Origin: a virus
IMG/VR virus record: IMGVR_UViG_3300025362_000004
Location: 59,583-123,582 of that record
Reading direction: 5' to 3' (one strand)
Length of the DNA: 64,000 nucleotides
In this document: in pieces, positions 4,233 through 63,297 of the stretch
How positions within the stretch are numbered: position 1 is the first letter of the stretch
How the letters are laid out: each line of letters opens with the position of its first letter
Position numbers and translations under genes: made by a program
The notes under the pieces: generated by a model
Database searches by the model: none
Told to the model about the DNA's origin: nothing
What the model saw: only the letters and a program-made list of their open reading frames with translations

Positions 4233-4309
4233 GCCGATTTAGTGTTAATGGCTTAACATAAATGCCTTGTAAGCATAAGATATGGGTTCAACTCCTGTAA
4301 TCGGCACCA
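4233..4309 (+). tRNA. tRNA-Thr(UGU), copy 1
   Basis: Perfect acceptor GCCGATT/AATCGGC, A73, CCA; loop CTTGTAA. One of three tRNA-Thr(UGU) genes. Confidence 0.9.
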
Positions 4310-13681: not shown

Positions 13682-13758
13682 GCCGACTTAGCTCAGATGG
13701 CTAGAGCGCGTCACTTGTAATGACGATGTCGAGGGTTCAATTCCTTTAGTCGATACCA
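13682..13758 (+). tRNA. tRNA-Thr(UGU), copy 2
   Basis: Perfect stem CGTCA/TGACG with loop CTTGTAA; acceptor GCCGACT/AGTCGAT with one mismatch; A73, CCA. Confidence 0.87.
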
Positions 13759-13761: not shown

Positions 13762-13836
13762 GCTCCTATGATGAAATCGGTATCATAATTGCCTTGTAAG
13801 CAATATTTCGGGGTTCAAATCCTCGTGGGAGCACCA
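13762..13836 (+). tRNA. tRNA-Thr(UGU), copy 3
   Basis: Acceptor GCTCCTA/TGGGAGC, A73, CCA; loop CTTGTAA on ATTGC/GCAAT. Confidence 0.88.
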
Positions 13837-16782: not shown

Positions 16783-16786
16783 AATT

Positions 16787-17647: not shown

Positions 17648-17670
17648 GGTTTTAATTAGAGGTGAAAGAA

Positions 17671-17913: not shown

Positions 17914-17925
17914 TTCACTACCCAT

Positions 17926-18002: not shown

Positions 18003-18005
18003 AAC

Positions 18006-18397: not shown

Positions 18398-18415
18398 AAA
18401 AAGGAAAGAAGGAAT

Positions 18416-18790: not shown

Positions 18791-18801
18791 AGGAGAGCAT
18801 T

Positions 18802-19672: not shown

Positions 19673-19697
19673 TGAAATAAAATACAAAGGAGAATAT

Positions 19698-19892: not shown

Positions 19893-19908
19893 GGTTGAGG
19901 TTAGAACC

Positions 19909-19955
19909 GCCGCAGAAACTATCCCTTTCAAAAAAAAGTTTTAACAGCGGCACCA
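19909..19955 (+). ncRNA. Mini tRNA-like element ending in CCA
   Basis: GCCGC (19909-19913) pairs with GCGGC directly before A-CCA; AACT and AGTT form an inner stem. 47 nt. Could be a tRNA remnant or an acceptor mimic. Confidence 0.35.
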
Positions 19956-19957
19956 AT

Positions 19958-20032
19958 GAAAATATAGTGTAATGGTTAGCACACTGAGTTCCGAACTCAG
20001 GAGTAGGGGTTCAATTCCCCTTAGTTTCACCA
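19958..20032 (+). tRNA. tRNA-Arg(CCG)
   Basis: Perfect stem CTGAG/CTCAG with loop TTCCGAA; acceptor GAAAATA/TAGTTTC with one mismatch; A73, CCA. Reads CGG. Confidence 0.85.
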
Positions 20033-46278: not shown

Positions 46279-47250
46279 ATGAGTTTATTAGATATAAAAC
46301 CTCATCAAGTTAGTAGTTCACCTTTAGACAAGGTATTTCTTATCTATGGCGAGCCTGGAACTAGAAAAACATCTGTTGCAGTTGGAGATATAGAACATAC
46401 ACTTTTACTTGCTTTTGAAGTAGGTTATAAGTTTATACCAGGCGTATACGCAAAGAATATTATGAATTGGGTTACTCTTAAACAAATTTTAAGAGAACTG
46501 GACAATGATAATGTTAGAGAAAAATTTAAAACTATTGCTATTGATACAATCGGATTGGCATACAAAGCGTGTGTTAATTATATTTGTTCACAAAAGGGTG
46601 TAGAAGAAATTGGTAAAATCCCTTATGGACAAGGATACTCAATGGCTAAAAATGAATTTGAAAAAGTGATTAACTCAATCCCACAAAGAGGATTCGGGCT
46701 TATCATGGTTGCGCATTCTGACGAAGTAACAGACGATAATGGAATTTCAGTTAAAGTAGACATCAATAAAAGGCCTTCAAGTGTTATTAAAGGTTTAGCG
46801 GACTTTATACTTTATAGTAGAAAGGAACAACTTGATGACAAACCTGAAGAATCAACAGTTTATGCTTACTCAGAAATTAGTAAAGGACATGTTGAAGTTA
46901 AAAAGAGAGCAAGATTTTTCCCGAAAAGATTTGAATTTACTTATGAAAATCTTATTAAAGGGTTAGAAGAAGCTATCAAAAAACAAGATGAATTCTTTGG
47001 AACGCAATCTATTGAAGAAGCAGACTTTAAAGTTTTTGTAGAAGAAAAGGAAGTTGATTTAAAAGCGTTGCAAGATGAAGTAGCGGCTTTAGCAAGTTCA
47101 TTATTCGAAACTGCTGAAAAAGATATAACCATAAAAACTATTAAAGAACTATTACCTAATGTTAGAATCACTAAAACCAATAGAAATCATATCTCAGCGT
47201 TATTCGCACTAAGAGAAAGATTAACTACACTTAAAAAAGGACTTAGATAA
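46279..47250 (+). CDS. RecA-like AAA ATPase (Sak4 type), 323 aa
   Basis: IYGEPGTRKTSVAVG (res ~23-37) is Walker A with Arg replacing Gly/Ser before K-T, and IAIDTIGLAYKA (~89-100) is Walker B. GFGLIMVAHSDEV and KGLADFILYSRKE follow, as in phage Sak4/AAA_24 recombinases. These single-strand annealing or strand-exchange ATPases work with SSB, the preceding gene. The C-terminal ~90 residues are Lys/Glu-rich and unlike the core. Confidence 0.85.
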   Translation: MSLLDIKPHQVSSSPLDKVFLIYGEPGTRKTSVAVGDIEHTLLLAFEVGYKFIPGVYAKNIMNWVTLKQILRELDNDNVREKFKTIAIDTIGLAYKACVNYICSQKGVEEIGKIPYGQGYSMAKNEFEKVINSIPQRGFGLIMVAHSDEVTDDNGISVKVDINKRPSSVIKGLADFILYSRKEQLDDKPEESTVYAYSEISKGHVEVKKRARFFPKRFEFTYENLIKGLEEAIKKQDEFFGTQSIEEADFKVFVEEKEVDLKALQDEVAALASSLFETAEKDITIKTIKELLPNVRITKTNRNHISALFALRERLTTLKKGLR

Positions 47251-47252
47251 AA

Positions 47253-47618
47253 ATGGAAAAAAAAGAGTTAGAACAATTTATTTGCTCTACTCTAGGAATA
47301 GAACTTATTAATGACACTATAAAAAGACAAATTAATAAATTCGTAACTAAGCGTGGGTTGGGATACGACGATATCGCCCGCGCTTTAACTTTCCATGTCG
47401 AAGTAAAGAAAGAAAAGTATGAACCGAGATATGGGATATCTTTTATAGAGTGGACAGCAGACGAAGCAAAAGAGTATTATGAAAAAGAAGAAAGAAGAGA
47501 AAAGGCTAAGTTGAATAGCCTTAAAAAAGAATCAACCAATATTATATTAAAAGCAGACAAGTTAAAAGAAAGAAAACCAATGAAAAAAATTGAAATAGGA
47601 GAATTAGGCGATGATTAA
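47253..47618 (+). CDS. Hypothetical replication-operon protein, 121 aa
   Basis: ATG follows 2 nt after the previous stop. N-terminal half compact, C-terminal half a charged coiled-coil (KEYYEKEERREKAKLNSLKK). Position between the recombinase and helicase genes is where some phages carry helicase loaders, but I see no diagnostic motif. Confidence 0.65.
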   Translation: MEKKELEQFICSTLGIELINDTIKRQINKFVTKRGLGYDDIARALTFHVEVKKEKYEPRYGISFIEWTADEAKEYYEKEERREKAKLNSLKKESTNIILKADKLKERKPMKKIEIGELGDD

Positions 47619-47638
47619 GAAATCGGGGGTAATGATTA

Positions 47639-49222
47639 ATGGCAGAAAAAACATTGTATGATTCGAATGCGATAATGTATGTGCTTGGAGTAATCATGCG
47701 TCAGCCAGATATAATCCATCAAAATGGATATATATTATCTACAACAGATTTTGAAGGATTACATGAAATTTTGTTTGGCGCCATGTACAATCTTTCGGTG
47801 GAAGGTTCAATTACACTTACGCCGGGGCAAGTAGACCTATATCTTAGACAGTTTACTAAACAATACGAGATATATACAAAAACAAACGGATACGAATATT
47901 TACAACGATTAAACACGTTAGTAGATATAAATTTTGATAAGAGTCAATTTGACTATTATTATAATAGAGTTAAGAAATTTACTATTTTAAGAGATTTTAG
48001 TAGAAGCGGTATAGACATAAGAGAATTCTATAACCCAGATGCAGATTTTCTGAAAATAGATGAAGAAAATGAAAAATTAAACAATTTAGAAGTTAAACAA
48101 ATCTTTGATAGAATTCGTGAAAGAATTGCGAATGTTGAAGATAAAAATATAAGTAAAGCAAATGTAAAAGCAATTCCTGTAGGTCAAGGACTACAAGAAT
48201 TAGTAGAAGAATTAAGTGTCCATCCTGAAGTGGGGTACCCATTAGATGGCGAGATATTAAACTTTTCTACTCGTGGTGCAAGACTTGGAAAGTATTATCT
48301 TTATAGCGCTCCGACTGGACATGGGAAGACTCGTTTTATGGTTGGTAATGCTTGTGCACTATCAATGCCATATATCAAAGATGGAAAGATTATTATTAGA
48401 GACCATTTAAGACCAATACTTTTTATTGCAACTGAAATGGAGCCTGATGAAATTCAAACATTAGTATTAGCATATGTTAGCGGAATTAATGAAGACAAGA
48501 TACTTAATGCTACTTACAGTCCAGAAGAAAAGAAAATAATTCAGATTGCGATAAGGCTAATTCAAGACTATTCAGAAAATTTTAGAATTGAAAAGATTAG
48601 TGACCCAAACATCTCATTAGTGCGTAGTAAAATAATTAAGTATATATTGTCAGATAAAATCTACAATATATTCTACGATTATATTTTCACAACGCCTTCT
48701 TTAAACATGGAATTTTCTCGTACAGGATTACGCGAGGACGTTACATTAATGATGTTATCAAATACTTTGAAAGAGCTTGCGGCTGACTATAATGTATTTA
48801 TAATGAGCGGGACTCAAGTTAATAGAGGCTGGGAAAAACGTCAATTTAGAAATGAGAATAATATCGCTGGTTCAAAAGCGATTGCAGATAAAGCAGACTT
48901 TGGTATGATTGCATTAAAACTATTAGATACAGAGTTAGAAGAAATTGCAACTTATTTAAAAGAATTAGATTTACCAATACCTAATGTGGTTATTGATATT
49001 TATAAAAACCGTAGAGGTAAAATTGTAAATGCAAAATTATTTAGAATATTTGATTATGGAACTTGTAGAGCAATAGACGTATTATTAACAGATACTAATT
49101 ATAATGTTATGCATAATCTAGGAAAAATTGAATATACTTATAAGGTAAAAGATTTATTAGAAGTTATAGTGGATAAACATAATAAGAAAAAAGATGATGA
49201 TGATGAGGGTGGTGACAAATAA
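47639..49222 (+). CDS. Replicative DNA helicase (DnaB-like), 527 aa
   Basis: A helical N-terminal domain (res 1-~180) with alternating-length helices is followed by a RecA core: SAPTGHGKTRFMVG (res ~221-234) Walker A, LFIATEMEPDEIQ (~260-272), IFYDYIFTTP (~342-351) Walker B region, MSGTQVNRGW (~391-400) and AGSKAIADKADFGM (~410-423). This is the DnaB order. It should form a hexamer unwinding DNA 5'-3' ahead of the DnaE-like polymerase and recruit the primase encoded next. Confidence 0.92.
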   Translation: MAEKTLYDSNAIMYVLGVIMRQPDIIHQNGYILSTTDFEGLHEILFGAMYNLSVEGSITLTPGQVDLYLRQFTKQYEIYTKTNGYEYLQRLNTLVDINFDKSQFDYYYNRVKKFTILRDFSRSGIDIREFYNPDADFLKIDEENEKLNNLEVKQIFDRIRERIANVEDKNISKANVKAIPVGQGLQELVEELSVHPEVGYPLDGEILNFSTRGARLGKYYLYSAPTGHGKTRFMVGNACALSMPYIKDGKIIIRDHLRPILFIATEMEPDEIQTLVLAYVSGINEDKILNATYSPEEKKIIQIAIRLIQDYSENFRIEKISDPNISLVRSKIIKYILSDKIYNIFYDYIFTTPSLNMEFSRTGLREDVTLMMLSNTLKELAADYNVFIMSGTQVNRGWEKRQFRNENNIAGSKAIADKADFGMIALKLLDTELEEIATYLKELDLPIPNVVIDIYKNRRGKIVNAKLFRIFDYGTCRAIDVLLTDTNYNVMHNLGKIEYTYKVKDLLEVIVDKHNKKKDDDDEGGDK

Positions 49223-50275
49223 ATGTCAAGCCAGATTAAAGAAATGAGAATGCAATTGACGCATACAGAAATTAAGAATATTTTAGGTCAATACGGCGTT
49301 CTACCATTTGACGAAAATGAAACAGAGATTATATTTCCTACTGCCTGTCATAATTTAAAAGGCGGCAGTCCGAAACTATATTATTATAAAAACGAAAAGA
49401 TGTTTAGATGTTATACAGAGTGTAATAAAATGTTTGATATATTTGATTTACTTATGAAGATGGACAAACTTCGTGGTATAGAAACTAATTTATCTCAGGC
49501 AATAAGAACAACTGGGGTTGATAACAACAAACCTGTTGATGTGGAAATATATAAAGATATTGAGTTTCTACGTAAAGTAACGCAAAAAACATCATATGGT
49601 CAGACTGAATTAACAGTATATGATAAAGATGTATTAAATAGATTTAGTTATGATTTAAAAGGATTAAAGTCATGGATTGATGAAGGAATTACAGAAAGGG
49701 CTATGAAGAAGTTTAACATATTATATGATAGCTTCCTTAATGCAATAGTAATACCTAATTTTGACCATGCTGGTGATTTAATAGGAATCCGAGGTAGATT
49801 TCTTAATCCAGACTCACCATATAAATACTTGCCTCTAAAGTCTTATAACACAACTTATTCTTTTCCTACTGGAAAGGTGCTATACGGACTTTATCAAAAT
49901 CAAGAGAACATAAAGAAAAAGAAAACCATAATTATATTTGAAGGAGAAAAATCAGTATTAAAAGCAGATGAATATTTAAAAGGTAATAATATTAGTGTTG
50001 CGACGCTAGGTAATAAAATCACATTAGACCATTTAAACTTATTATTATCATTAGAAGTTAATGAAGTTATGTTAGCATATGACAAAGATTTTACTAATAA
50101 GAAAGAAAGAGAAGAAACTATGGCAGAATGGGATAAATTATTAACTATATTAAAGCCATATTTTAAAGTTACATTTCTTATTGATACTGATAACCAATTA
50201 GATTTAAAGGATTCTCCTATTGATAAAGGAAAGGATGTTTTTATGGAATTAATAAAATACAGGGTGAAAAGATAA
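49223..50275 (+). CDS. DnaG-like DNA primase, 350 aa
   Basis: The N-terminus has a CHC2-like zinc finger (FPTACHNL... MFRCYTECNKMFDIFDLL, res ~33-75). The Toprim core follows: LNAIVIPNFDHAGDLIGIRG (~172-191), IIIFEGEKSVLKA (~234-246), LAYDKDF (~283-289) with acidic metal ligands. It is shorter than bacterial DnaG and lacks the helicase-binding C-domain. ATG begins immediately after the helicase stop; both are made from one mRNA. Confidence 0.9.
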   Translation: MSSQIKEMRMQLTHTEIKNILGQYGVLPFDENETEIIFPTACHNLKGGSPKLYYYKNEKMFRCYTECNKMFDIFDLLMKMDKLRGIETNLSQAIRTTGVDNNKPVDVEIYKDIEFLRKVTQKTSYGQTELTVYDKDVLNRFSYDLKGLKSWIDEGITERAMKKFNILYDSFLNAIVIPNFDHAGDLIGIRGRFLNPDSPYKYLPLKSYNTTYSFPTGKVLYGLYQNQENIKKKKTIIIFEGEKSVLKADEYLKGNNISVATLGNKITLDHLNLLLSLEVNEVMLAYDKDFTNKKEREETMAEWDKLLTILKPYFKVTFLIDTDNQLDLKDSPIDKGKDVFMELIKYRVKR

Positions 50276-52059
50276 TGAGTAGTAAAATTAGATATAGAGT
50301 GAAACCGAACACGAGCATTAATTTGAATTCAGCTAATCCAGTAAAGGATTATTTAGAAGCACTTGGTATAGAGAATGCGTTCAGTTTTATAGAGAGACCA
50401 AGATTAGAAGACCAAGAATTTTACGGAAATTTAGACAATATTGAAGAGGCAGCAGAATTATTATATAAGGGATTTAAAGAGAACAAAATATTTTTCCTAC
50501 AAGTCGATAGCGACGTGGATGGTATTACAAGTTCAGCAATATTTTATTCGTTTTTCAAAAGACTCTTTCCAGAAGCAAAAATAAGATATAGACTTCATGA
50601 AGGTAAAGAGCATGGGGTTATAGTGGATACAGTTCCGCTAGATACAGATTATGTTATTATACCAGATGCGGGAACCATGCAATATAAACAGCAACAAGAA
50701 ATGGTTGAATTAGGTTATCAAGTTATTATTATGGACCACCATAATGCTGATGAATTTATAGAAATGGAAAACGTATGTGTTGTAAATAACCAAATGTCCG
50801 AGAACTTTAATAACAAGAGTTTGAGTGGTGCTGGAGTAGTTTATAAAGTTATTCAAGCATTTAACTTTTTATATCAAGATGAATTTCCAATCATCTATCA
50901 AGATTTCGTTGATTTAGCCGCATTGGGGATTGTCGCAGATATGATGGATACTAGGAACTTAGATAACAATTATATTATTTATAAAGGTTTAAGTAATATT
51001 AAAAATCCTATGTTTAAAGCGTTATTAGAAAAGCAAGCTTATAGTGTCACAAGCACGGAGAATCCAACAAAGATAGACGTAGCATTTTATGTAGCACCAT
51101 TAATGAATGGAGTTATTAGATATGGAACTGAAAATGATAAAGCAGAATTATTTAAAGGATTCATTGATTACCATAATGAAGAAATAATTGAAACAACTTA
51201 TGCTGGCAATCTAAGAAGAGAAAAGTATTATGAGTTCGTTGCTAGAAATTCATATAATGTAAAAGAAAAACAGAATCGTGAGAAATTAAAATTCATGAAA
51301 TATCTTTGTGATAGAATTGATGCAGATAAAAGTTATGAGAATCAATTACTTATTGTAAAAGCTTCGAAAGAAGATGATGTAGCTATACCAAAAACAATCA
51401 CTGGTTTAGTGGCTATGGAATTATTAAAGAAATATAAGAAACCTACTTTACTATTAAGACCAAAAATGATAGATAACGAATTATATTATGCAGGAAGTGG
51501 TCGTGGTAAACAGAATGGAGATTTTACTTCATTAATGCATTTCTTAAGAGAAAGCGGATTAGTTGAATACGCCGAAGGGCATGGAATGGCGCATGGTGTA
51601 ATGATAAGAGAAGATAATATTGATAGACTAATTGAATACGCTAATAAAAAATTAAAACACATTGAGTTTGATGTAAACTCATTGGAAGTAGATTTTATGT
51701 TCACAGAAATGAATATTAATAGAAATTTAATAACTCAATTTGGTTCAATAAATCATATTTATGGTAATGGAATACAACAACCTAAATTTGCATTTGAATT
51801 AATGATAGATAAAATGGCAATTAATTTTATCGGTAGAGGAGAAAATACAGTCAAATTTAGAGTTAATGGGGTAGATTTTATTAAATTTAATAATAAAGCT
51901 CTAGCCACTCAGCTAAAAGAGATTGAAGAACCAACAATAAAAGCTACCGTTATAGGTAGAGCACAAGTAAACGAGTGGGGTGGAAATATAACTCCACAAA
52001 TAATGATAGATGATATAGAGGTGGAAGGATATGAGCAAGAACTCAACAAACTCTTTTAG
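50275..52059 (+). CDS. RecJ-like single-strand DNA exonuclease (DHH family), 594 aa
   Basis: QVDSDVDGITSSA (res ~76-88) is DHH motif I, VIIPDAGTM (~125-133) motif II, VIIMDHHNAD (~148-157) motif III, and LAALGIVADMMD (~219-230) motif IV. A DHHA1-type domain with GSGRGKQNGDF (~404-414) and GHGMAHGV (~433-440) follows, then an OB-like C-terminus. It degrades ssDNA 5'-3' in the family, useful for recombination or primer removal. Stop and start overlap with the primase gene. Confidence 0.93.
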   Translation: MSSKIRYRVKPNTSINLNSANPVKDYLEALGIENAFSFIERPRLEDQEFYGNLDNIEEAAELLYKGFKENKIFFLQVDSDVDGITSSAIFYSFFKRLFPEAKIRYRLHEGKEHGVIVDTVPLDTDYVIIPDAGTMQYKQQQEMVELGYQVIIMDHHNADEFIEMENVCVVNNQMSENFNNKSLSGAGVVYKVIQAFNFLYQDEFPIIYQDFVDLAALGIVADMMDTRNLDNNYIIYKGLSNIKNPMFKALLEKQAYSVTSTENPTKIDVAFYVAPLMNGVIRYGTENDKAELFKGFIDYHNEEIIETTYAGNLRREKYYEFVARNSYNVKEKQNREKLKFMKYLCDRIDADKSYENQLLIVKASKEDDVAIPKTITGLVAMELLKKYKKPTLLLRPKMIDNELYYAGSGRGKQNGDFTSLMHFLRESGLVEYAEGHGMAHGVMIREDNIDRLIEYANKKLKHIEFDVNSLEVDFMFTEMNINRNLITQFGSINHIYGNGIQQPKFAFELMIDKMAINFIGRGENTVKFRVNGVDFIKFNNKALATQLKEIEEPTIKATVIGRAQVNEWGGNITPQIMIDDIEVEGYEQELNKLF

Positions 52060-52258
52060 TCTAGAAGGGTTATTTAGAAAAAGGGGTATTTCATTATATC
52101 ACGCAGATGGTATTGAGAGAAGCCCTATAGATATAATTGAAGATTTATATATAAGACTTAACCAACGGGAATTAAGTACATTATTTTATGAAATTGGGGA
52201 AGAGGAAGATTTGGGAAATAACATTTTCCAAAGGGAGAGAGAACAGAATGAAAATTAA
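52031..52258 (+). CDS. Hypothetical protein, 75 aa
   Basis: GAGGTGGAAGG precedes ATG, inside the recJ end. Acidic C-terminus. No family recognised. Overlaps the dUTPase start by 11 nt. Confidence 0.6.
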   Translation: MSKNSTNSFSLEGLFRKRGISLYHADGIERSPIDIIEDLYIRLNQRELSTLFYEIGEEEDLGNNIFQREREQNEN

Positions 52259-52805
52259 TTTAATTGAATTAATGCCAATACAACAAGAAGTAAATGATGT
52301 TGTTATTAAAAGACTTGGTAGAAAAGTATCAATAGATGAATACATATTAGCATTTAATGTAGAGTTATTTGAATACTTTAACGCAATCGGGACTTGAAAA
52401 TGGTGAAAACAAAGCCATAAACAAGATAGAGAAAAAATACTTGACGAGCTAGCGGATTGCTTTGCGTTTTTCTTATCTGTGCTTTTAAGGTCAGATGAAG
52501 TTATGGAAGAACGAGGTAAAAATAAGATGTCTAAAACTGCCGAAAGAGAAGTTGAAGATACGCTTAATTTACTTTTAAAAGACCAAGAAAGAGACAACAT
52601 AGATACAACAAAATTAATAAATAGTTGGATTACTATGATTGCCTGTGACCATGAGACTGAAGATAATGTATTCACAACTCAAAGATTCTCAGTAGCAATT
52701 TTTTTAGCAACACAATTATTTGAAAACATAACTTGAAGTGAAATTACTGAAGCATATAAACAAAAATCAAAGGTCAATATTGACCGACAAAACGGAGGGT
52801 ATTAA
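52248..52805 (+). CDS. Dimeric dUTPase/MazG-like pyrophosphohydrolase with UGA-Trp codons, 185 aa
   Basis: Reading UGA as Trp gives EYFNAIGTWKWWKQ then DREKILDELADCFAFFLS (res ~44-76): the E-x-x-x...W-K-W-W-K and E-L-A-D-x-x-x-F metal-binding helices of all-alpha dUTPases. A second helix pair with E-x-x-D follows. In-frame TGA at 52395, 52404 and 52734; two other Trp are TGG. Stopping at the first TGA would remove the active site. It lowers dUTP and supplies dUMP. Start ATG 52248 follows GGGAGAGAGAAC. Confidence 0.85.
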
Positions 52806-52807
52806 AA

Positions 52808-53215
52808 ATGAAAAAATTTATTAATGGAATGTGGGTAGCAGATAATCTAAACGAACCAGCACCTGAACAATTATCAGGAACTTTATCAGCAACTGCAACT
52901 ATTAGCGGGACGACTCTTAATTTAACAGATTATACTACTACTGATAGTGTTGATTGGAGTGGAACCTCTATTTCTGGTACAACTACTTGCTGGCCATACT
53001 ATGACGGATATCCATACTACTGGATTCCAAATTATGGTTGGTCTTATCATTCATGTGAACAACCAGCTTATCAAGCTCTTAGTTGGAATGGAACTACTAT
53101 ACTTTATCGTTTCTTAACTAACTGTATTGAATATGCAATTATTGAAGCTGGAGAAAGTATAGAATTTGCAACAGCAGATAAGTTAGAAGAAATTTTAACG
53201 TTACTAAGAGATTAA
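52808..53215 (+). CDS. Aromatic-rich protein, 135 aa
   Basis: ACGGAGGG precedes ATG, 2 nt after the dUTPase stop. Residues ~27-65 are Thr/Ser repeats (SGTLSATATISGTTLNLTD), then a Trp/Tyr/Pro cluster (CWPYYDGYPYYWIPNYGWSY) typical of surface or structural binding loops. The C-terminus is helical. No family recognised; it looks more like a structural protein than a replication protein. Confidence 0.65.
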   Translation: MKKFINGMWVADNLNEPAPEQLSGTLSATATISGTTLNLTDYTTTDSVDWSGTSISGTTTCWPYYDGYPYYWIPNYGWSYHSCEQPAYQALSWNGTTILYRFLTNCIEYAIIEAGESIEFATADKLEEILTLLRD

Positions 53216-53220
53216 TTTCT

Positions 53221-53241
53221 GATACACCGCGTGCGGCGATT
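53221..53241 (+). repeat. GC-rich hairpin repeat, copy 7
   Basis: GATACACCGCGTGCGGCGAT, 43 nt before the promoter of GIY-YIG gene 3. Confidence 0.85.
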
Positions 53242-53252
53242 TAAGCATGGTA

Positions 53253-53313
53253 GAAAATTTTCAACATTTTGCACAACCATAAAGTTGAAAATTTTCCTAT
53301 TTTGTGTTATACT
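53253..53313 (+). promoter_or_regulatory. Promoter of GIY-YIG gene 3 with an overlapping inverted repeat
   Basis: TTGAAA (53285-53290) - 17 nt - TATACT (53308-53313). The -35 lies in the right arm of a perfect 13-bp inverted repeat GAAAATTTTCAAC (53253-53265) / GTTGAAAATTTTC (53284-53296), which could be an operator or terminator-like hairpin. Confidence 0.75.
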
Positions 53314-53333
53314 ATATGTATAGAGGTGATAAA

Positions 53334-54284
53334 ATGTTAGTTTATAAATTTATTAATACTGTTAACGAAAAATCTTACATAGGTATTACAACAAAAATTT
53401 TAGAAGAGAGAAAATTATTACATATAAGAGACGCTATGAACCATAATACTAATTCTATTTTTCATAAAGCGATAAGAAAATATGGAATAAAGTCTTTTAA
53501 AATCGAAGTCTTAGAAGATAACATAGAGGATAAAGAGGAATTAAAAGAAAGGGAAATATTTTATATATTAAAATATAATACTCATTATATTGAAGGATAT
53601 GGTTATAATATGACTCATGGAGGAGATTTAATGAATTCAGGTGAAGACCATCCAAGCTCTAAAATGACAAACGATGAAGTTAAAGAGATAAGAGAATTAC
53701 TTAAAAATACATCTTTGACGTATCCAGATATTGTTAAAAAATTAAACTTAAATGTAACAGGGAATCAAATCTATTACATAAACAACGGCGAACAATGGAA
53801 TGATTCGAATACAGAATATCCAATTAGAAAAAATCCAAAATCAATAAGTAAAACAGGGGAAAATAATCCAGCTGCAAAGTTGACAGATGAAAAAGTTTTA
53901 GAAATAATAGAGTTATTAAAAAATACTAGACTTAGCCAACAAGAAATTGCCGATAAATATAATATGCATAGGAATATGATTAACTATATAAATACCTGTA
54001 AGAGTTGGAAACATTTACATAATTTCAAAAACAATATAAGACAGGAATCTGGTATGAGTACAGAGAATAGAAAAATGCGGATAGGCGATAAAAAGACAAT
54101 AGAAATAATAGAACTTTTACAAACTAATATGTTACAAAAAGATATTTCAAAAAAAACTGGCATCGGTACTGTAACAATAAGTAAAATAAACAACTGCAAA
54201 GTAGGAAAATATTTACACAAATTTAAAAAGAACATTCGTAGAGAATGGAAAGGTGGTGGTACGGGTTATGAAAAAGATAAATAG
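53334..54284 (+). CDS. GIY-YIG homing endonuclease with repeated HTH modules, 316 aa
   Basis: N-terminal nuclease: LVYKFINTVNEKSYIGIT (res 2-19), R27, and E in KEREIFYILKY (~76-86), closing GYGYNMTHGGD. Three similar NUMOD3/HTH modules follow, each with N-P/H-x-A/S-K-x-T-D/N-x-x-V...I-x-x-L-L-K-N-T-x-L and I-N-N/T-C/G-x-x-W (res ~105-165, 185-245, 255-310). It ends 17 nt inside the reading frame of the dnaE start. Free-standing homing enzymes often sit beside the gene they target, here dnaE. Confidence 0.93.
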   Translation: MLVYKFINTVNEKSYIGITTKILEERKLLHIRDAMNHNTNSIFHKAIRKYGIKSFKIEVLEDNIEDKEELKEREIFYILKYNTHYIEGYGYNMTHGGDLMNSGEDHPSSKMTNDEVKEIRELLKNTSLTYPDIVKKLNLNVTGNQIYYINNGEQWNDSNTEYPIRKNPKSISKTGENNPAAKLTDEKVLEIIELLKNTRLSQQEIADKYNMHRNMINYINTCKSWKHLHNFKNNIRQESGMSTENRKMRIGDKKTIEIIELLQTNMLQKDISKKTGIGTVTISKINNCKVGKYLHKFKKNIRREWKGGGTGYEKDK

Positions 54285-57200
54285 TTATACTAGTTTACAT
54301 AACCATACGTAACTGATTATAGTAATTTACGTTTGATTGACTCAATAAACACGGTAGATAAACTTATAGACCGTGCTTTTGAGCTTAATCTGAAAGGTGT
54401 TGCTATAACTGACCATGATGCATTAAGCGGTCATGTAAAAGCAATTAACTATTATAACAAGAAGTATAAAGATGAAGATTTTAAACTTATACTCGGTAAT
54501 GAAATATATCTTACTCGTAGAGATTTAACTTCAGACAATCATGTAAAAGGCGAAAAGTTCTATCACCTATTACTTTTAGCAAAAGATAAAATAGGACATA
54601 AACAATTAAGAGAAATATCAAGTAAAGCTTGGGGTAGAGCATATTATAAAAACATAATGAGAGTCCCAACTTTCATAACAGACCTACAAAAGATTATAGG
54701 TAGAAGCCCAGGTCACTTAGTAGCAACTACTGCTTGTTTAGGTGGATATACTGGGCACATGTTCGCAATGAATGACTTTGATAAAATTACAGAGTTCCTT
54801 TCAACTATGGAAGGAATATTCGGTAAAGGGAATTTCTTTGTCGAATTACAACCGTCAAATAGTGAAGACCAAATAGCATACAATAAGCATATGATTATTA
54901 ATCATTGGAAAGATTATCCTTTTGTATTCACAACAGATAGTCATTATCTTAAAAAAGAAGATAGAGAAATGCATAAGAAATTCTTACATAGTAAGAGTGG
55001 AGATAGAGAAGTAGATGCTTTCTATTCAGCCGCATATCTTATGTCATATCAAGAAGTCGTATCTTATTTTAATACATATATCTCAATGCCAAAAATTGAA
55101 GATATGAAAAATAATACAAACAAAATACTTAATATGATTGAAGATTATGATTTAAACCATAGCCAAGTCGTTCCTAAAGTTAGATACGAACAAGAAAGAT
55201 TTGACCAAGAAAAATTAAGAATAGTAAAAGATTTATTCAAAGAGAACAACTTAGATAAATACAAATACCTTAACCTGTTTATTAATGGCCATTCAGCCGC
55301 GAACAGATACCTAATGGATTTAGTATTTGAAGGTTATTATGACAAGATATATTCTATTTCTTCTGAAATAACGATAGAAGAAAGAATGAAAAGACTTGAC
55401 TACGAATTAGAACAAATCTATGAAACATCAGTAAAAATCGACCAATCACTTTCAGATTACTTTATAACTATGGCAAAAATGATTGAGATTATTTGGAACG
55501 AAGCAGATAGTTTAGTTGGTCCAGGTCGTGGTTCAGCTGCGGGATTCTTAATCAATTATTTGATTGGTATTACTCAGTTAGACCCACAAACACAAATGTT
55601 ATACTTACCGCCATGGAGATTTATTCATGCCGATAGACCAGGGTTACCTGATATTGATGTTGATACTGAATCAACGAAAAGACTTAAAATATTCAATAAA
55701 CTACAAAGTTATTTCAATAGTATCGGTGCAGACTTAATTAATGTTTGTACATTTGGGACTGAAGGAAGTAAATCAGCATTAAGAACTGCTGGTAGAAGTT
55801 TAGAATTAGATGATTCATTCGTTGGATACTTAACATCAATGGTTCCTAGTGAGCGTGGGTTTGATTTAACTCTTACCCAATGTTTCTATGGTGATGATGA
55901 ACATAAACCTGTAAAACAATTTTTAGAAGAAATGAATAAGAATCCTGATTTATGGGAACTTGCAATAGCAATTGAAGGATTAATAACACGTATTGGGGTT
56001 CATGCCGCAGGTGTTTTAATCACGAATGAAGACCCAACCCTACATAGTTCAATTATGAAAACTAGTCGTGGTGTAGTTGTAAGTGCTTATAATCTTGATG
56101 ATAGTGAACAAATTGGTGGGCTTAAATATGATATGTTAACTGTGCAAGCACTTGACAAAATTCATGCGACAATGAACTACTTACTAGATGACCATTCAAT
56201 ACAATGGCAAGGAACATTAAGAGATACATATAATAAGTATCTACTTCCAGCAAATCTAAATTATACTGAACCTGAAATGTGGAAGAAACTTGGAGATGGA
56301 GATATAGTTGATATTTTCCAATTTGATACTGCTGTTGGTTCACAAGCAATTGTAAAAATTAAACCACAAAATATTGGTGAACTAGCAGTTGCAAACTCTA
56401 TAATGAGATTAATGTCGCAAGGTGAAATGGAACAACCACTTGAAACATATGTAAAATATAAAAATAATATAAGCCTTTGGTATAGAGAAATGGAAATGTA
56501 TGGTCTTTCAGAAGAAGAAATGGATTCTTTAGAGAAGTACTTGAAGCCACTTTACGGAGTAGCAGATTCTCAAGAAGCAGTTATGCAACTTACAATGGAG
56601 CCAAAAATAACAAACTTTAATCTTACTGAAGCAAACTCATTAAGAAAAGCGATTGCTAAAAAGAAAGCAGATATTCTTGCTAAAACAAAAACAATGTTTT
56701 ATGATAAAGGTAACGAATTAGGAACAAGTCTTAATCTGTTAAATTATGTATGGAATGTTCAAATTGGTAGACAAATTGGATACTCATTTAGTTTACTACA
56801 TACAATGGCTTATTCAACAATCGCATTACAACAAATGAACTTATCATATTTTTATCCAGATATCTATTGGAAAACAGCATGTCTTTCAGTTAATGCTGGG
56901 GCGATAAATGAAGAAGATTATTATAATTTAGTTGAAGAAGGAATCATTGAATTAACAGATGAAGATGATGTCAGAACACAAACTAAAATTCAATACGGAA
57001 AAGTAGCATCTGCTATTAGTAATTTCCGCGGCGACATCAACATAAAATTACCAGACATAAATTTATCAAGATTGGGATTTACTCCTGATGTAAAAGAAAA
57101 TACTATTCGTTATGGTATTAAAGGTATCTCAAGAGTTGGAGAACATATTATCCAAGAGATAATTTTGAATAGACCTTATACAAGTTTAGTTGATTTCTTA

Positions 57201-58175
57201 GATAAGTTAAATAATGGTAAAAAGAAAAAAGTTATTTCAAAAGAAAAAGTAGTTAATTTGATTAAAGCGGGAGCTTTTGATAAACTTGAGGATAAACCAA
57301 GAGGAGAGATTTTAATTAATTTTATGCATATGATTGCAGACCAAAAGAAAAATCTTACTTTATCAAACTTCTTAATGTTAATTAGAAAAAACTTAGTTCC
57401 TATCGAATACGAAGAAGAAAAGAAATGTTATATGTTCACGAAATATATTCGTAAGAGTAGATATGATAACTCTTATGTTCTTGACGAAGTAGCGCAAGAT
57501 TACTTCTTTGAGAGATTCCCTAAAGAAAAAACAAAGACTTTAATTCAAGATGAAGAAGAAGTTATTGTAATTTCAGAAAGTTGGTGGGATAGTGTTTATA
57601 ATACATTTATGAATAGAATACGTGAATGGTTAAAAATAAATAAAGAAGAATTATTAAAAAAACTAAATAATGAATTATATTTAGAAGAATATAATAAATA
57701 TGCACAAGGTGATATTTTAGATTGGGAACTTCAATCAATAAACTTCTTTTATAGTGGACATCCGCTTAAAGATATTGAAATACCAATAGAACATACAAAG
57801 CTTGCTGATGTAAATGACCCAGAAATAGTTGGATTTTTCCAAATCAAAGGTAAGCAAATTCCTGAGTTTAGACTTTATACTATAATCGGAACGGTTATAG
57901 ATAAAAATAGACAAAATGGTCATGTTACATTATCAACTCCTGATGGAGTAATTGATATTAAATTCTATAAATCACAATTCTCAAAGCTAGTTCATGAAGA
58001 CGAAGAATTAGCCGAAGAAAACTATTTTGAAAAAGGAAATCATTTAATGATAACTGGTATGAAACGTGGAGACATCTTCGTACCAAAAGCATATAAGAAA
58101 ACGGGTATTGATGCTGTTCTTTTAATGCACCTCGATGAAGATAGAAAATTTATAGGATTTAGAAAGAAAGCATAA
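54268..58175 (+). CDS. dnaE: DNA polymerase III alpha subunit (DnaE type), start out of frame with the body, 1300 aa if joined
   Basis: PHP domain: SLHNHT (54295-54309) then DYSNLRLIDS (54315 on), ITDHDALSGHV, DSHYLKKED. Polymerase core: VGPGRGSAAGFLINYLIG, PDIDVDTE with catalytic Asp pair, ADSQEAVMQL, then tandem HhH and a C-terminal OB-fold (IIGTVIDKNRQNGHVTL). All Trp are TGG. The start MKKINSYTSLHNHT meets TAA at 54310; the body is in another frame. Joining T(ACG) to D(GAT) requires moving past 5 nt. Without joining, a TTG at 54333 would start a protein lacking PHP motif 1. Confidence 0.9.
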
Positions 58176-59338
58176 TGAAAGTAACTATTTGGGATATGGA
58201 CTTTTATAATAAAAAGTCCTTCCTACCTAATCCAACATTAATGAAAATCTCTTCTTTTCATAAACAACAAGGGCACGTTGTTAATTTTGTGGAAGAGAAA
58301 CATCACCTTAGTATGGCTTATGATATTTTCTATATTATGAGAAAGAAAAGAAAAACACCTAGACCTTCGTCAAAATTAATAGACGATAATAGAGTTAGAT
58401 TACTTGGAGAAAGTTTTAAACCGTTTGATAATTATTGGGAAATAGATGCGGTTATTGCCGCTGTTCGCCCAGATTATATGCTATACCCCGATGATGACAA
58501 ACATAATCCTTACTATAACGCTAGCTTTGTTCAATTCTACCATGATGGAAAATTACTTACGATGAAACAACCATTTGAGAATACTAAGAAGTATCACAAA
58601 AAGACGGTTGTTATAGATGAAGACTTCTGGGAACATTCCGATGAAAATGTGATTTTATGTCTAACTGAGTTAACAACTTATAAAAATGTTGCGTTTTTGG
58701 CTCCAATAAAGCTTAAAAAAATAATAGATTCAGAAGAAATTAGGAAATGTTTTCTAAAAATTATTTTTTCAAAAGGAACAATTTTTAAATTTCAAAACAA
58801 TATAGGTTCTAGCTATAAAAACGCAAGCACCATGTTCGATTTTATTGAAGATTTAAAGGAAGTAAATGAGAAATGTAAGTTAGGAAGCGTACCTATCAGA
58901 ATTGTATCTTCTAATCATTGGGAAGATAAACAGAATGCAGTTGACGATTTAGAGCGATGCTTAAAGATTATGTCAGAAGCAAAAAGAAGAAAGATACATA
59001 TTATTCTTGTCTCACCTACACGAGAAGATTTTGAAACACCTTATTGGTATTATTTTGAAATCCTGCAATCTTGGAGTATAAATTTCTATGATAAAAGTTA
59101 TATCGAACTAATGCTTTATAGTAGTGTATCTAGGTTTAATTTGCCGTGGTATGCTATATTGAATGATAGTATGAAGTGGAGTTTACCTAACGCTAATCAT
59201 TTATTAGCGGTAATTACGCAAAAAAGAGAATGGATAGAAAAATATGGTTATGTACAATGGGGCGAAAAAGAGTTAGAGAAGGAATTAATAAATTGGAAAG
59301 AAATAGAAAAATTTACAGGAGGCGAGATAATTGATTAA
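58175..59338 (+). CDS. Hypothetical protein, 387 aa
   Basis: ATG overlaps the dnaE stop (TAATG). The first 40 residues (MKVTIWDMDFYNKKSFLPNP, then MKISSFHKQQGHVV) resemble the B12-binding-like start of phage radical-SAM proteins, but there is no C-x-x-x-C-x-x-C cluster, so no radical-SAM activity is expected. The rest has no recognised motif. Between polymerase and proofreading exonuclease genes. Confidence 0.7.
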   Translation: MKVTIWDMDFYNKKSFLPNPTLMKISSFHKQQGHVVNFVEEKHHLSMAYDIFYIMRKKRKTPRPSSKLIDDNRVRLLGESFKPFDNYWEIDAVIAAVRPDYMLYPDDDKHNPYYNASFVQFYHDGKLLTMKQPFENTKKYHKKTVVIDEDFWEHSDENVILCLTELTTYKNVAFLAPIKLKKIIDSEEIRKCFLKIIFSKGTIFKFQNNIGSSYKNASTMFDFIEDLKEVNEKCKLGSVPIRIVSSNHWEDKQNAVDDLERCLKIMSEAKRRKIHIILVSPTREDFETPYWYYFEILQSWSINFYDKSYIELMLYSSVSRFNLPWYAILNDSMKWSLPNANHLLAVITQKREWIEKYGYVQWGEKELEKELINWKEIEKFTGGEIID

Positions 59339-59894
59339 AGAGATGCATGTAGATATAGAAACAACAGGTTTTAGTAGAGAATGGGATTTTATTTTAGAAA
59401 TTGCGGCTATTATATATGATTCAGAAACAGATAAAGAATTGACTAGATTCCACGAATATATTAAACCAGGCAAAACTATATCAAAGAAAATTACAGATAT
59501 AACTGGTATCACAAACGACCAAGTTAAAAACTGTAGAAATGAGTTTGAAGTCCTAACTGATTACATAGAATGGGTATTTATAAATAAACCAGATGTAGAA
59601 ATAGGACACAATGTAAAAACGTTTGACCATCAATTCTTTGCAAGAAAATGTGAAAAATATAGAATAACTATGTATGATATAGAAATTATAGATACTTTAA
59701 AACTTGCAAGACAAATGAGTAAAGACGGAAAAATAAAAGTTGCTAATCATAAACAACCAACTATTGCACAGTATTTTAATATAGACTACCAAGCGCATAG
59801 TGCGATTGAAGATATATTAGCAAACAGAAAAATGTATAAAAAAATGACAGTTGAAACCGGCGTGAAAAGTAAGAGAAAAGAGCTAGGTTTTTAA
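59331..59894 (+). CDS. DnaQ-like 3'-5' exonuclease (proofreading type), 187 aa
   Basis: Exo I MHVDIETTGFSREWD (res ~5-19), Exo II IGHNVKTFDHQFF (~89-101), Exo III AHSAIEDILANRKM (~156-169) give the DEDDh set. Size and motif spacing fit the epsilon proofreading subunit. Starts at TTG with ACAGGAGGCG upstream, overlapping the previous stop. Likely edits for the DnaE-type polymerase, which lacks its own exonuclease. Confidence 0.88.
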   Translation: MIKEMHVDIETTGFSREWDFILEIAAIIYDSETDKELTRFHEYIKPGKTISKKITDITGITNDQVKNCRNEFEVLTDYIEWVFINKPDVEIGHNVKTFDHQFFARKCEKYRITMYDIEIIDTLKLARQMSKDGKIKVANHKQPTIAQYFNIDYQAHSAIEDILANRKMYKKMTVETGVKSKRKELGF

Positions 59895-59907
59895 CAGAGG
59901 TGATTAC

Positions 59908-60087
59908 ATGTCAAAATTAGATTTCACTAATATTAGTGATAAAGAATTATTAGAACTTGAGAAAAATGAAGATTCAGCGATTGGGAAAAAATTAATTAAA
60001 ATGATTTATGACCCAGAACTTGGAGAACATTATGAAAAGTTAGAAGAAATCAAGCAAGAAAAAGACCGCAGAAATTTAGATGGCTAG
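59908..60087 (+). CDS. Small acidic protein, 59 aa
   Basis: ACAGAGGTG precedes ATG. Charged helical peptide (SDKELLELEKNEDSAIGKK), no family recognised. Overlaps the RuvC-like gene by 8 nt. Confidence 0.65.
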   Translation: MSKLDFTNISDKELLELEKNEDSAIGKKLIKMIYDPELGEHYEKLEEIKQEKDRRNLDG

Positions 60088-60820
60088 GTTAAGTAAAGCT
60101 CAATTCTTAGAAGAACTTGAAAATAAAAATCTGACTTTGGATACACAGTCAGAAGAATATAAAAATATAAGTTCTCCAATTCTCGTTAACTGTAAGGAAG
60201 GACATAGAATAGAAACTAATTTGAAAACAATTAGAAGAACTAATTTTAGATGTCCAGTTTGCGAAGGAGAATCGTCTACAGGATTGAGTACACCTAATCC
60301 GCAATCAGTTCCACCTAAAAAGGGATACAGAATTATTGGGATTGATAATGCGACGCAAAGTTTTGGTTTAAGTATATTCGAGAGTGGCAAATTAATTTAT
60401 TATACGTTGTTGACTTTTAGCGGCGATACGACAGCACGATTAAATGCGATAAGAGATGCCATGGAGAATATGATTATACCAGTTTGAGAACCAGATTTTG
60501 TTCAGTTTGAAGACGTGCAATTACAAGGACAAGGATTCGGCAAAGGATTTAAAACTTATGAGGTTTTAGTTAAATTAGTTGGATTACTTGAAATGAGTTG
60601 TGCTAGATTTGGAATTAGATATAGTAAAGTAAGAAGTAATATCTGGAGAAGTAATTTCTTAATTAATGGAAAGGGTAGGACTGAAGAAAAGAAAAAATCT
60701 ATTGCAAAGGTAAAAGAAATGTATGGAGTTACACTTAATGATGATATTGCAGAAGCAATACTTATTGGGAAATACAGAGTTACATTACATGAAAAAAGTG
60801 AACGAAAAGATTTATTTTAA
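60080..60820 (+). CDS. RuvC-like Holliday junction nuclease with N-terminal zinc ribbon and one UGA-Trp, 246 aa
   Basis: An N-terminal zinc-ribbon-like part (VNCKEGHRIETN...FRCPVCEGE, res ~35-60) precedes the RuvC fold: IIGIDNATQSFGLSIF (~91-106, first Asp), VQFEDVQLQGQG (~141-152, Glu) and NDDIAEAILIGKY (~220-232, final Asp pair). TGA at 60485-60487 is Trp (IIPVWEPDFVQFE); stopping there removes the catalytic Glu and Asp. It resolves branched DNA before packaging. Last gene of the rightward block. Confidence 0.88.
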
Positions 60821-60858: not shown

Positions 60859-61172
60859 TATACTTCTACATATTGTGACGCCTGTGCAGATATACTTTTA
60901 CCAGTTGCTGTGGCTGTAGCATAAATTGTTGTATACGGAGTCGTAGAGCCTGCAACTATTTCAATAGTTTTTGATAGATAAGTAATTCCAGTGTAGTCAC
61001 TGCCGCCGCTATTAATTGTTGCCGTCACGGTGTCATTATTTTGTACTTTTCAGTAAACGTCATAGAATCTAAATCCATCATAAACAATTGAATAGTCTGT
61101 TATTGTTGGAGTCGTAGTTGGCTCTTTTTGTTGACTTAATACTCCAAATAAGATAATACTAATTGTAATCAC
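60858..61172 (-). CDS. Small tail-region protein with UGA-Trp, 104 aa
   Basis: GTG (61172-61170) follows GTATATAGTAG and overlaps the end of the tail gene. A hydrophobic N-terminus (ITISIILFGVLSQQ) precedes a Thr/Ser-rich Ig-like region (TTTPTITDYSIVYDGFRFY then DVYWKVQNND). The Trp in VYWK is TGA on the minus strand. No family recognised; a minor structural or fibre-associated protein is likely from position. Confidence 0.65.
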
Positions 61173-63297
61173 CTACTATATACCACACTGTTGAAGTATA
61201 AGCAATTAATGTAACAGCCGCATATACAGTAGAGACGACTTTGCTTGCTGAAGAACCATTTAAAGTTACACCACTACATGCTATTGTAACATCATCACCA
61301 GAAGAATTAAATACAGTTATTTGTGTCCCAGCAGTTAGAGTCGACGGTATTGTTAATGTACATTCAGCATAGGCATTTACAAAGCCGTTATTATCTGTAG
61401 CTGCAAAATTCCTAGCTGAGCCCTGACCGTCTATGTGAGCGTATAATAGTCTGTATCCTGCCTTAACATGTGCTGTAGTTGCAATCTGTGTTGTATCTGT
61501 ACCCACTGCGGCTGTTGGGGCCGTAGGGGTTGAAGTTAAAGCTGCACTTGTAAACATCGTAGCTTTTGATTCATTCGTTACATTTTGTAAAAGTAAATCT
61601 GTTTTAAAGAGTGTTGCTGTAAGCAAACTAGCAACGCCTCCAGTTGTGATTTGAATATAACTAGTTGTAGCTGGAGTAGTTTTTGTGAATAAATCTTTTC
61701 CTACATCTGTACCGCCAAGTGACGTTCTACCTGTCGCCGCTACTAGGCCAGTACTACCACCGTCTCATTTAAGCCTATCTGTGTAGGCTGTAGACCAATT
61801 AGTCTGGTTTGTAGTCGTAGGTATACTGTATCCTGCAGTAAATGATAACGCTAATGTACCAGAACCTGTAATAGGTGAATTCGAAACTGTTAAACCGGTA
61901 GGCGCAGATAATCCCACTGAAATTACTGTACCAGTATTATCTGTAGGTGTGAATCCTAAAGCCGTAGTGACATCTAATGAAACTATAGCTGAAGTATAAG
62001 TAGGCACTCCACTATCTGTAACTTTATCATCATTAGTTTGAACTCTGTATTCAAGTTTTCTAAAACTGTCTAATATCGAATCTGTTGCAATTAAATCTGA
62101 TGCACTACCGTAAGTTGTAAAGCCAGTTAAAGCCATGGCAATTACTTGAGCATTACTTAACTGTGTGTTAGGTGGTGCAGTAAATGCACCATCTCCACGA
62201 AGATATTTAGTTGTAGCTGCTGCTGCAGGTACTAAGCCACTATTCCCTTCAGCGATTGCTGAAGAATACTGTATATTTGTAGAATTAAAAGCATTACTTC
62301 CAAAACCTGAAGTTAAAGTATAATCACCGAGTGCAGTTGTTAAGTCTGATGTTACTAAATTTCCACTTGCTGTCCCTGTTAATGCTCCTTTAAAAGTTGT
62401 TGCAGTAATACTTTTATTATCTCTATTTATAGTTATACCAGTTGTAGAATAAACAGTGTCTCCTGAATTCCATACTATATTGTATTCACCAGTTCCACTA
62501 TTACTTGCATTTACATCTACTGTGTCCGCTCATTTTACATATAAATTATCAACCATTGTCGTTGATGCCACTGTAAACGGTGCTGTTCCAGTTACTATTG
62601 ATGATTCAAGTATATTCGCTTTTAATGTACCAGTCGAACTTTGTATTTGGACATTTGTTGCTGAATATAAAGCATTCCCACTATGCCAAGGTACACTGTA
62701 AAATGTTGCATCAGTTCTACCAGTTGCAACTGCTGGGGGGAATGAGGTTCTACTATCAATTCCACTTCTTGAAACCATTGCTACATTGCCAGTTCCTGCA
62801 CCAGTTAATACATAACCATTTGTAAGTGTTGTTAATCCAGTACCACCATGAGTTACTGCAACTGTCCCAGTAACATTTGATGCGTTTCCTGTTATATTAC
62901 TAGTAGATTGAATTGGTGTAAACCCTAACCCAGCAACTACTGCTGCACTTGTAACTACTGCAGTTTTAACACTTGCCAAGCTTGTTGGTCTAACATAATT
63001 ATCTGTCCCATCTCCTGGCGTTACTTGGGTCATAAAGTGATTTGGTGTTGTGTTATTTGATGTATAAGTTGGTCTAAGCAATCTAATTTTTAAATCTCCA
63101 CTGCTATCTCTTAAAGCAATTGTATTTGCCGTATTTTCAGAAGAACTAGAATATCCGTCTAATAAATCTGCATTTAAATTAGTTACTTTTGTCGTTGAAC
63201 CAATCACAAGAGGTGCTGTTCCCGTAGAAACTAAAGAGATAATTTGTCCTGTAATTTTTTGTGCTCCGTATATTTCTGTATATCCTAATTTAGCCAT
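61159..63297 (-). CDS. Tail fibre / receptor-binding-region structural protein with UGA-Trp, 712 aa
   Basis: The reading frame is continuous once two TGA codons (LYVKWADTVD and DRLKWDGGST) are read as Trp. Repetitive Thr/Ser/Ala/Gly sequence typical of phage tail fibres: TKVTNLNADLLDGYSSS near res 37 is the 'N-A-D-x-L-D-G' fibre motif, and PTAPTAAVGTDTTQIATTAH near the C-terminus is a common phage fibre repeat. Part of a minus-strand structural block read towards the replication genes. Four other Trp are TGG. Confidence 0.85.

What the first reader, a model, noticed from the sequence alone, without database searches (positions are those of the whole stretch)
54268..54333. dnaE start out of frame: possible Thr-codon hop over a UAA
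MKKINSYTSLHNHT ends in ACG followed by TAA, while DYSNLRLIDS continues two bases out of frame. A jump of peptidyl-tRNA-Thr from ACG (54307) to ACT (54312) would skip TA and give exactly HNHTDYS, the PHP metal motif. Matched take-off and landing codons beside a stop, next to a homing endonuclease gene, recall the T4 gene 60 bypass. The phage has three tRNA-Thr(UGU).
Basis: partly seen in the sequence, partly recalled or inferred. Interest (0 to 1): 0.78.

Follow-up and report, generated by a model that had tools for sequence, protein, structure and literature searches.

The report
Phage polymerase gene with ribosome hop
This phage's DNA polymerase gene is broken near its start by a stop codon and a five-base frame shift that ribosomes probably hop over, and at least 32 other distinct phage polymerase genes carry similar breaks at the same spot, often next to a DNA-cutting "homing" gene, which suggests the ribosomal trick protects the gene from being cut.

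Summary
dnaE opens with MKKINSYTSLHNHT (ATG 54268), meets TAA at 54310 and continues two bases out of frame at ACT-GAT-TAT (54312). The five extra bases are also in a second IMG/VR contig that matches over 37 kb, and no other frame break was detected in the phage's genes that have homologues.

The break is not unique. Scans and searches found seven other distinct phage dnaE genes with an out-of-frame insertion in the same HxHTxYSN motif. [quoted passage not shown] Another 25 distinct genes carry a prfB-type CTT-TGA-Y +1 site a few codons on. An HNH endonuclease family sits directly upstream in 18 of 33 recoded genes and in none of 105 intact ones (two match only its N-terminal domain). In the window a GIY-YIG endonuclease fills that slot.

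Best reading: programmed recoding of an endonuclease-associated insertion, comparable to T4 mobA/gene 60; in the window a peptidyl-tRNA-Thr hop from ACG to ACU. No protein was measured; the mechanism is inferred.

The parts
53334..54284 (+). GIY-YIG homing-endonuclease gene (316 aa), its 3' end overlapping the start of dnaE
   Evidence: Pfam GIY-YIG E 7e-5, residues 2-83, plus helix-turn-helix matches; one of four GIY-YIG genes in this phage
54251..54259 (+). Shine-Dalgarno-like AGGTGGTGG, 8 bases before the dnaE ATG
   Evidence: read from the sequence
54268..54312 (+). short dnaE 5' reading frame MKKINSYTSLHNHT followed by TAA
   Evidence: matches the N-terminus of relatives such as MNKKSYFSIHNHTSYSNLRL (L006)
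54307..54309 (+). proposed take-off codon ACG (Thr)
   Evidence: parallel cases
54310..54312 (+). in-frame stop TAA; the two bases TA (54310-54311) would be skipped
54312..54314 (+). proposed landing codon ACT (Thr), in the frame of the polymerase body
54315..58175 (+). dnaE body (DNA polymerase III alpha, SPbeta YorL-like): PHP, NTPase, finger and HHH domains
   Evidence: Pfam PF02811, PF07733, PF17657, PF14579; about 53% identical to the nearest relatives
54333..54335 (+). TTG, the only ATG/GTG/TTG in the polymerase frame before 54657 (rival internal start; no Shine-Dalgarno-like sequence before it)
4233..4309 (+). tRNA-Thr (UGU), could pair with ACG and ACU
   Evidence: ARAGORN
13682..13758 (+). 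tRNA-Thr (UGU)
   Evidence: ARAGORN
13762..13836 (+). tRNA-Thr (UGU)
   Evidence: ARAGORN

Best explanation
The frame break is real and DnaE is made across it by programmed translational recoding. The ribosome reaches ACG with UAA in the A site. The peptidyl-tRNA-Thr (anticodon UGU) lets go, re-pairs with ACU two bases further on, and reading resumes at GAU, giving the native ...HNHTDYSN... PHP metal motif. The insertion belongs to a cassette of a homing endonuclease gene plus a recoded target: an endonuclease that cuts the conserved HxHxxYSNxRLLD coding sequence of dnaE is carried directly upstream, its carrier is protected because an insertion (often with clustered synonymous changes) has altered the target, and recoding keeps the polymerase expressed. 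Shown here: the frame break, its recurrence at the same place in unrelated phages, the adjacent stop and mostly matched codons, and the association with an upstream HNH gene in relatives. Inferred: that ribosomes hop, that the endonuclease cuts this site, and that the insertion protects.
For: Seven other distinct dnaE genes (L147, L193, L196, L197, L198, L199, L236) have out-of-frame insertions in the same motif, although neither the homology search nor the scan patterns that found them demanded a stop or matched codons. All eight have a stop directly after the last codon (UAG seven times, UAA in the window), and seven of eight have a cognate landing codon that restores the native protein. In-frame insertions found by the same scans (L192, L194, L195, L237, L238) carry no stop. 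A further 25 distinct genes have CTT-TGA-Y with the polymerase resuming in the +1 frame; homology continues downstream as far as the contigs reach, up to full length. Several recoded sequences recur identically in different metagenomes (L207/L208, L218/L226, L215/L220), so they are not assembly slips. Elsewhere in the relatives' dnaE genes only one small frame break was seen (L158, in a G run). The other PHP metal-ligand positions of the window protein are conserved. In the phage's genes with homologues no other frame break was detected. An HNH family lies directly upstream in 18 of 33 recoded genes against 2 of 105 intact, and those two match only the N-terminal domain (Fisher p 9e-12); over independent tree pairs it goes the same way in about 7 of 14 and never the other way (median p 0.016). 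The recoded state changes about 16 times on the tree. In close pairs, differences concentrate in the 40-base motif (15/40 against 79/850 in L206/L070, p 3e-6; 9/40 against 80/850 in L213/L150, p 0.013).
Against: No protein, ribosome-profiling or reporter evidence. L196, the closest parallel (same codon, same 5-base length, also code 4), lands on GCG, which tRNA-Thr could pair with only through G-U pairs. The window's take-off and landing codons are synonymous, not identical. Only 14 residues precede the site, too few for a T4-type nascent-peptide signal, and no convincing 3' hairpin was found (z -1.1). The window carries a GIY-YIG gene, not the HNH family, and GIY-YIG or other HNH genes also lie upstream of intact dnaE genes (L081, L082, L157, L169). 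Three other hop cases with enough upstream sequence (L197, L199, L236) have no HNH gene there. The second contig may not be independent of the first.
Confidence: 0.6

Rival explanations
1. The recoding is real but is a frameshift, not a hop: the ribosome slips -1 near ACG and reads GTA ACT, making HNHTVTDYSN with two extra residues (HNHTLAEYSN in L196). Several Ser-type cases would be +1 shifts adding two or three residues.
For: A -1 shift is open in both the window and L196 and would explain L196, where the landing codon is not matched. +1 shifting at stops is apparently common in this gene family (CTT-TGA-Y).
Against: ACG and ACT are not slippery and tRNA-Thr cannot re-pair one base back. 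It would need -1 in some genes and +1 in others and would not explain why seven of eight sites have a cognate landing codon that restores the native length.
Confidence: 0.17
2. DnaE starts downstream at TTG 54333 (or by reinitiation after the TAA), and the polymerase lacks its first PHP strand and HxH motif.
For: TTG 54333 lies 20 bases after the stop; SPbeta yorL itself starts with TTG; a separate DnaQ-like exonuclease is encoded at 59331-59894, so PHP proofreading might be dispensable.
Against: No Shine-Dalgarno-like sequence before TTG. The remaining PHP metal-ligand positions are conserved, unexpected if the site were dead. Nearly all intact relatives keep HxH, and the recoded ones keep it in the short upstream frame.
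Confidence: 0.12
3. A real loss-of-function frameshift in a dead or decaying phage population.
For: A 5-base insertion beside a mobile endonuclease could be a mis-repaired cut.
Against: No other frame breaks detected in the phage's genes with homologues; identical in a second contig; the remaining 1280 codons are intact; the same kind of break recurs in many phages.
Confidence: 0.07
4. Assembly or sequencing error.
For: Raw reads were not available; the second contig may share reads with the first.
Against: Two assemblies with different ends agree base for base; the insert has the structure seen in other phages and is a 0.2% event under random insertion.
Confidence: 0.04

Closest known systems
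T4 gene 60 programmed bypassing with mobA (PMC5009743, PMC3014915)
   Same: [quoted passage not shown] the review states that the insert may have protected against the nuclease.
   Different: Gap of 2 bases (window) or 4-8 bases (relatives) instead of 50; no room for the gap stem-loop; only 14 residues before the site; found repeatedly in many phages rather than once; GIY-YIG in the window, HNH in most relatives.
Stop-hops in synthetic constructs (PMC5009743, its reference 54)
   Same: Peptidyl-tRNA hops between matched codons flanking a stop.
   Different: Those were laboratory constructs; the review says no natural in-frame stop-hop was known. Here natural and out of frame.
prfB (release factor 2) +1 frameshift CUU UGA C
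   Same: 25 distinct relatives of the window dnaE have CTT-TGA-Y near the N-terminus.
   Different: Not the window itself (UAA, code-4 phage). The PRFect paper (PMC10885494) says that all CUU-stop frameshifts in RECODE are prfB genes.
Mitochondrial byps of Magnusiomyces capitatus (PMC5009743)
   Same: Short frame-breaking inserts removed at translation, take-off and landing codons often matched.
   Different: Mitochondrial, 81 sites, an unused codon rather than a stop in the A site; here one gene, one motif, a stop in the A site every time.

Membership tests
T4 gene 60-type programmed bypassing | take-off and landing codons read by the same tRNA | tested here: met
   ACG/ACT, both Thr, three tRNA-Thr(UGU) genes; synonymous rather than identical
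T4 gene 60-type programmed bypassing | stop codon directly after the take-off codon | tested here: met
   TAA 54310-54312
T4 gene 60-type programmed bypassing | take-off stem-loop formed within the coding gap | tested here: not met
   the gap is 2 bases; the 171-base context folds better than shuffles (z -2.3) but no comparable hairpin lies just 3' of the site
T4 gene 60-type programmed bypassing | nascent-peptide signal about 25-30 residues upstream | tested here: not met
   only 14 residues precede the site
T4 gene 60-type programmed bypassing | efficient bypass shown in protein | not testable with these tools
   needs mass spectrometry or a reporter
prfB-type +1 frameshift | CUU followed by a stop, resumption in the +1 frame | tested here: not met
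   window has ACG UAA and needs +2; met instead in 25 distinct relatives
Homing endonuclease plus recoded-target mobile cassette | endonuclease gene directly upstream of the recoded gene | tested here: met
   GIY-YIG 53334-54284; HNH in 18 of 33 recoded genes
Homing endonuclease plus recoded-target mobile cassette | the endonuclease cuts the uninterrupted target and not the recoded one | not testable with these tools
   needs a cleavage assay
GIY-YIG homing endonucleases | GIY-YIG catalytic domain over the family cut-off | tested here: met
   PF01541 23.5 bits against a cut-off of 22.6
SPbeta YorL-type phage DNA polymerase III alpha | PHP, pol3 alpha, finger and HHH domains and yorJ-yorK-yorL synteny | tested here: met
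   Pfam; primase-like 49223, RecJ-like 50275, dnaE order as in SPBc2

The most novel reading that the evidence does not exclude
Homing endonucleases of more than one family have repeatedly installed recoding sites (stop-hops or prfB-type +1 shifts) at the PHP motif of phage DNA polymerases, so that translational recoding is a general partner of endonuclease homing, and phages that read UGA as Trp use UAA/UAG hops where others can use a UGA-based shift.
Probability: 0.45. Interest if true: 0.93.

Novelty: new variant of a known kind. Interest (0 to 1): 0.85.

Why it matters
Natural ribosome bypassing is known from very few places; the review read here treats T4 gene 60 and one yeast mitochondrial lineage as the clear examples. 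A family of short stop-hops in one essential phage gene, together with prfB-like +1 sites at nearly the same spot, would give many natural variants for finding what a ribosome needs in order to hop. The link with an upstream endonuclease gene would turn the T4 mobA/gene 60 story from a single curiosity into a repeatable evolutionary route: an insertion protects a gene from a selfish nuclease and recoding pays the cost. It also means that standard gene callers truncate or split these polymerases.

Tried and rejected
Intron: Rfam found none at 47000-60000, and five bases cannot be an intron. Second intact dnaE in the genome record: none. Readthrough under another code: TAA is a stop in code 4 as well. 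+1 shift at ACG: meets TAG three codons later. Decaying genome or poor sequence: no further frame breaks in regions with homologues; the in-frame TGA in the RuvC-like gene is a Trp codon of code 4. Exact-sequence scan for further copies of the site: only the sister contig. Isolate phages: the 60 matches listed all cover the N-terminus in one frame. Plasmids: no HNH relative. HNH relatives in Vibrio phage VnaP and Pseudoalteromonas phage H101 do not lie beside a dnaE. Control scan allowing any NTN codon before TGA in HNH-type motifs returned only CTT (4 contigs, 2 distinct phages), a weak control. Papers: no report of recoding in phage dnaE was found in the library searched.

Full report
What is there. 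The dnaE gene of this phage starts at ATG 54268 behind AGGTGGTGG, codes MKKINSYTSLHNHT and meets TAA at 54310. The polymerase continues as ACT GAT TAT AGT from 54312, two bases out of frame. Placing the extra five bases anywhere consistent leaves HNHTDYSNLRLIDS, which is what relatives have: SPbeta YorL (CHCHTDRSN), Leuconostoc phage phiLM33_01 (HNHTSYSNLRL), Mammaliicoccus phage F1 (HNHTDVSN). Of 102 distinct relatives in IMG/VR and GTDB genomes, 99 have the HxH motif in frame with the rest. A second IMG/VR contig of 37,195 bp is identical to the window apart from one base at its end; it could be from the same or a sister sample. There is one dnaE in the 123,582-base record. Among genes with homologues in five related phages no other frame break was detected.

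The code. The phage reads TGA as Trp: in its late genes many in-frame TGA codons align with Trp of relatives, and the RuvC-like gene has TGA 60485 where relatives have Trp or also TGA. TAA and TAG remain stops.

It is not alone. Three GTDB relatives lacked the in-frame motif, and all three turned out to have their own frame breaks: L147 reads ...CAG TAT TCT TAG TGTG TCT AAT CTT..., and L162 and L165 read ...TTA CTT TGA C.... A degenerate scan of IMG/VR for the HNH-type motif with a longer gap, which asked for neither a stop nor matched codons, gave L193 (TAT-TAGG-TAC), L196 (ACT-TAGCG-GAG), L197 and L198 (TCT-TAGG-TCT), L199 (TCC-TAGGTAAG-TCC) and the window's sister contig. The CAC version added L236/L239 (TCT-TAGG-TCT). 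Thus eight distinct genes have out-of-frame insertions, every one with a stop directly after the last codon and seven with a codon for the same amino acid (five identical, two synonymous) directly before the native resumption. In-frame insertions found by the same scans (L192, L194, L195, L237, L238) have no stop. A second scan for CTT-TGA-Y at the R-L-L|D position gave 32 contigs, all true dnaE N-termini; with L162 and L165, and with duplicates removed, these are 25 distinct genes. Homology continues downstream as far as the contigs reach, some genes with introns of about 1 kb. Elsewhere in the relatives' dnaE genes the only small frame break was in L158, in a run of G.

The tree. On a tree of the shared polymerase region (FastTree; 124 or 126 rows) the recoded and intact states are interspersed, needing 16 changes in all, 14 of them forced by well-supported branches. 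The window branches near the intact L012/L013, with 53% identity. Close pairs show what changed: L213 against L150 and L206 against L070 differ by the extra T and by clustered differences in the motif (9/40 against 80/850, p 0.013; 15/40 against 79/850, p 3e-6). The +1 genes also keep CGY-TTA before CTT (CGY in 23 of 25 against 21 of 85 intact, p 1e-9).

The endonuclease link. Directly upstream of the recoded genes, usually ending within 50 bases of the HxH codons, lies an HNH gene family (Pfam HNH; motif KPSLDHIIPKSKGG...NLQFLTVFENL...KRDMT...EW...SDYFIENI). A profile of it matches upstream in 18 of 33 recoded loci (15 of 25 +1, 3 of 8 hop) and in 2 of 105 intact loci, which match only its N-terminal part and not the HNH core (Fisher p 9e-12). 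Several copies are broken (L162, L202, L223, L229, L231), as expected for decaying homing genes. In phylogenetically independent pairs the HNH gene goes with recoding in about 7 of 14 and against it in none (median p 0.016). L196 also uses code 4: its HNH gene is open with five TGA=Trp codons, and its break sits at the same codon and has the same 5-base length as the window's. The window carries a GIY-YIG gene in this slot, one of four in the phage, and no HNH. GIY-YIG and other HNH genes also occur upstream of intact dnaE (L081, L082, L157, L169), so an endonuclease alone does not predict recoding.

Mechanism. The simplest common account is a stop-hop: with a stop in the A site the peptidyl-tRNA leaves its codon and re-pairs with a cognate codon 4 to 8 bases beyond, or 2 bases beyond in the window. 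For the window this is tRNA-Thr(UGU), of which the phage has three genes, from ACG to ACU. A -1 shift (HNHTVTDYSN) is the main rival and would suit L196, whose landing codon GCG is not cognate. An internal start at TTG 54333 has no Shine-Dalgarno-like sequence and would remove the HxH motif while the other PHP ligands are conserved. Under random 5-base insertion a native-restoring matched stop-hop arises in 0.22% of cases. Why it exists is inferred: the T4 precedent is an HNH gene (mobA) and a 50-base bypassed insert that may have protected against the nuclease (PMC5009743, PMC3014915). Here too an insertion in the conserved coding target would protect the carrier, and recoding would keep DnaE alive. 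The UGA-based +1 site could not work where UGA is Trp, which fits the UAA and UAG of the two code-4 phages; this is a suggestion from two cases.

Limits. The +1 genes and most hop genes were found by patterns, so no frequency can be given. Intact and recoded loci were recruited in different ways, though the HNH gene was not part of either search. The stem-loop and nascent-peptide features of T4 gene 60 are absent. No experiment has been done. In the held literature no report of recoding in phage dnaE was found, and one paper states that all CUU-stop frameshifts in RECODE are prfB (PMC10885494).

Noticed in passing
60080-60820 (TGA at 60485); G000 contig 1, about 13-30 kb: The phage reads TGA as Trp: TGA aligns with conserved Trp in late genes and in the RuvC-like gene, while dnaE uses 14 TGG and no TGA. 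Relatives L015, L018, L021 and L022 show the same TGA in the RuvC-like gene.
   Followed up: partly
3734-20032: 39 tRNA genes and a tmRNA gene (18006-18397, tag SPEYRIRLLTNTKW) in the phage.
   Followed up: no
L008, L155-L157, L159, L160, L162, L165-L171, L212, L224, L232: dnaE genes of relatives carry about 1-kb intron-like interruptions at recurring places (about residues 440-480, 590-620, 720 and 845-860 of the query proteins).
   Followed up: no
L199:8785-10149: A 454-aa gene that looks like a nucleobase permease lies directly upstream of a recoded dnaE, an unusual neighbour (judged by eye, no family search).
   Followed up: no
L158:2560-2720: Frame break in the middle of dnaE within a run of G; sequencing error or another recoding site.
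   Followed up: partly
L241:3040-3984 (Vibrio phage VnaP): An HNH gene related to the dnaE-associated family lies between two short fragments annotated as DNA methylase.
   Followed up: no
+1 class, L202-L233: Codons CGY-TTA before CTT-TGA-Y are kept beyond amino-acid need: a possible stimulator of the shift or an altered endonuclease target.
   Followed up: partly
61159-63297 and 63298-63957, minus strand: Tail-fibre-like frames are open only if TGA is read as Trp.
   Followed up: no
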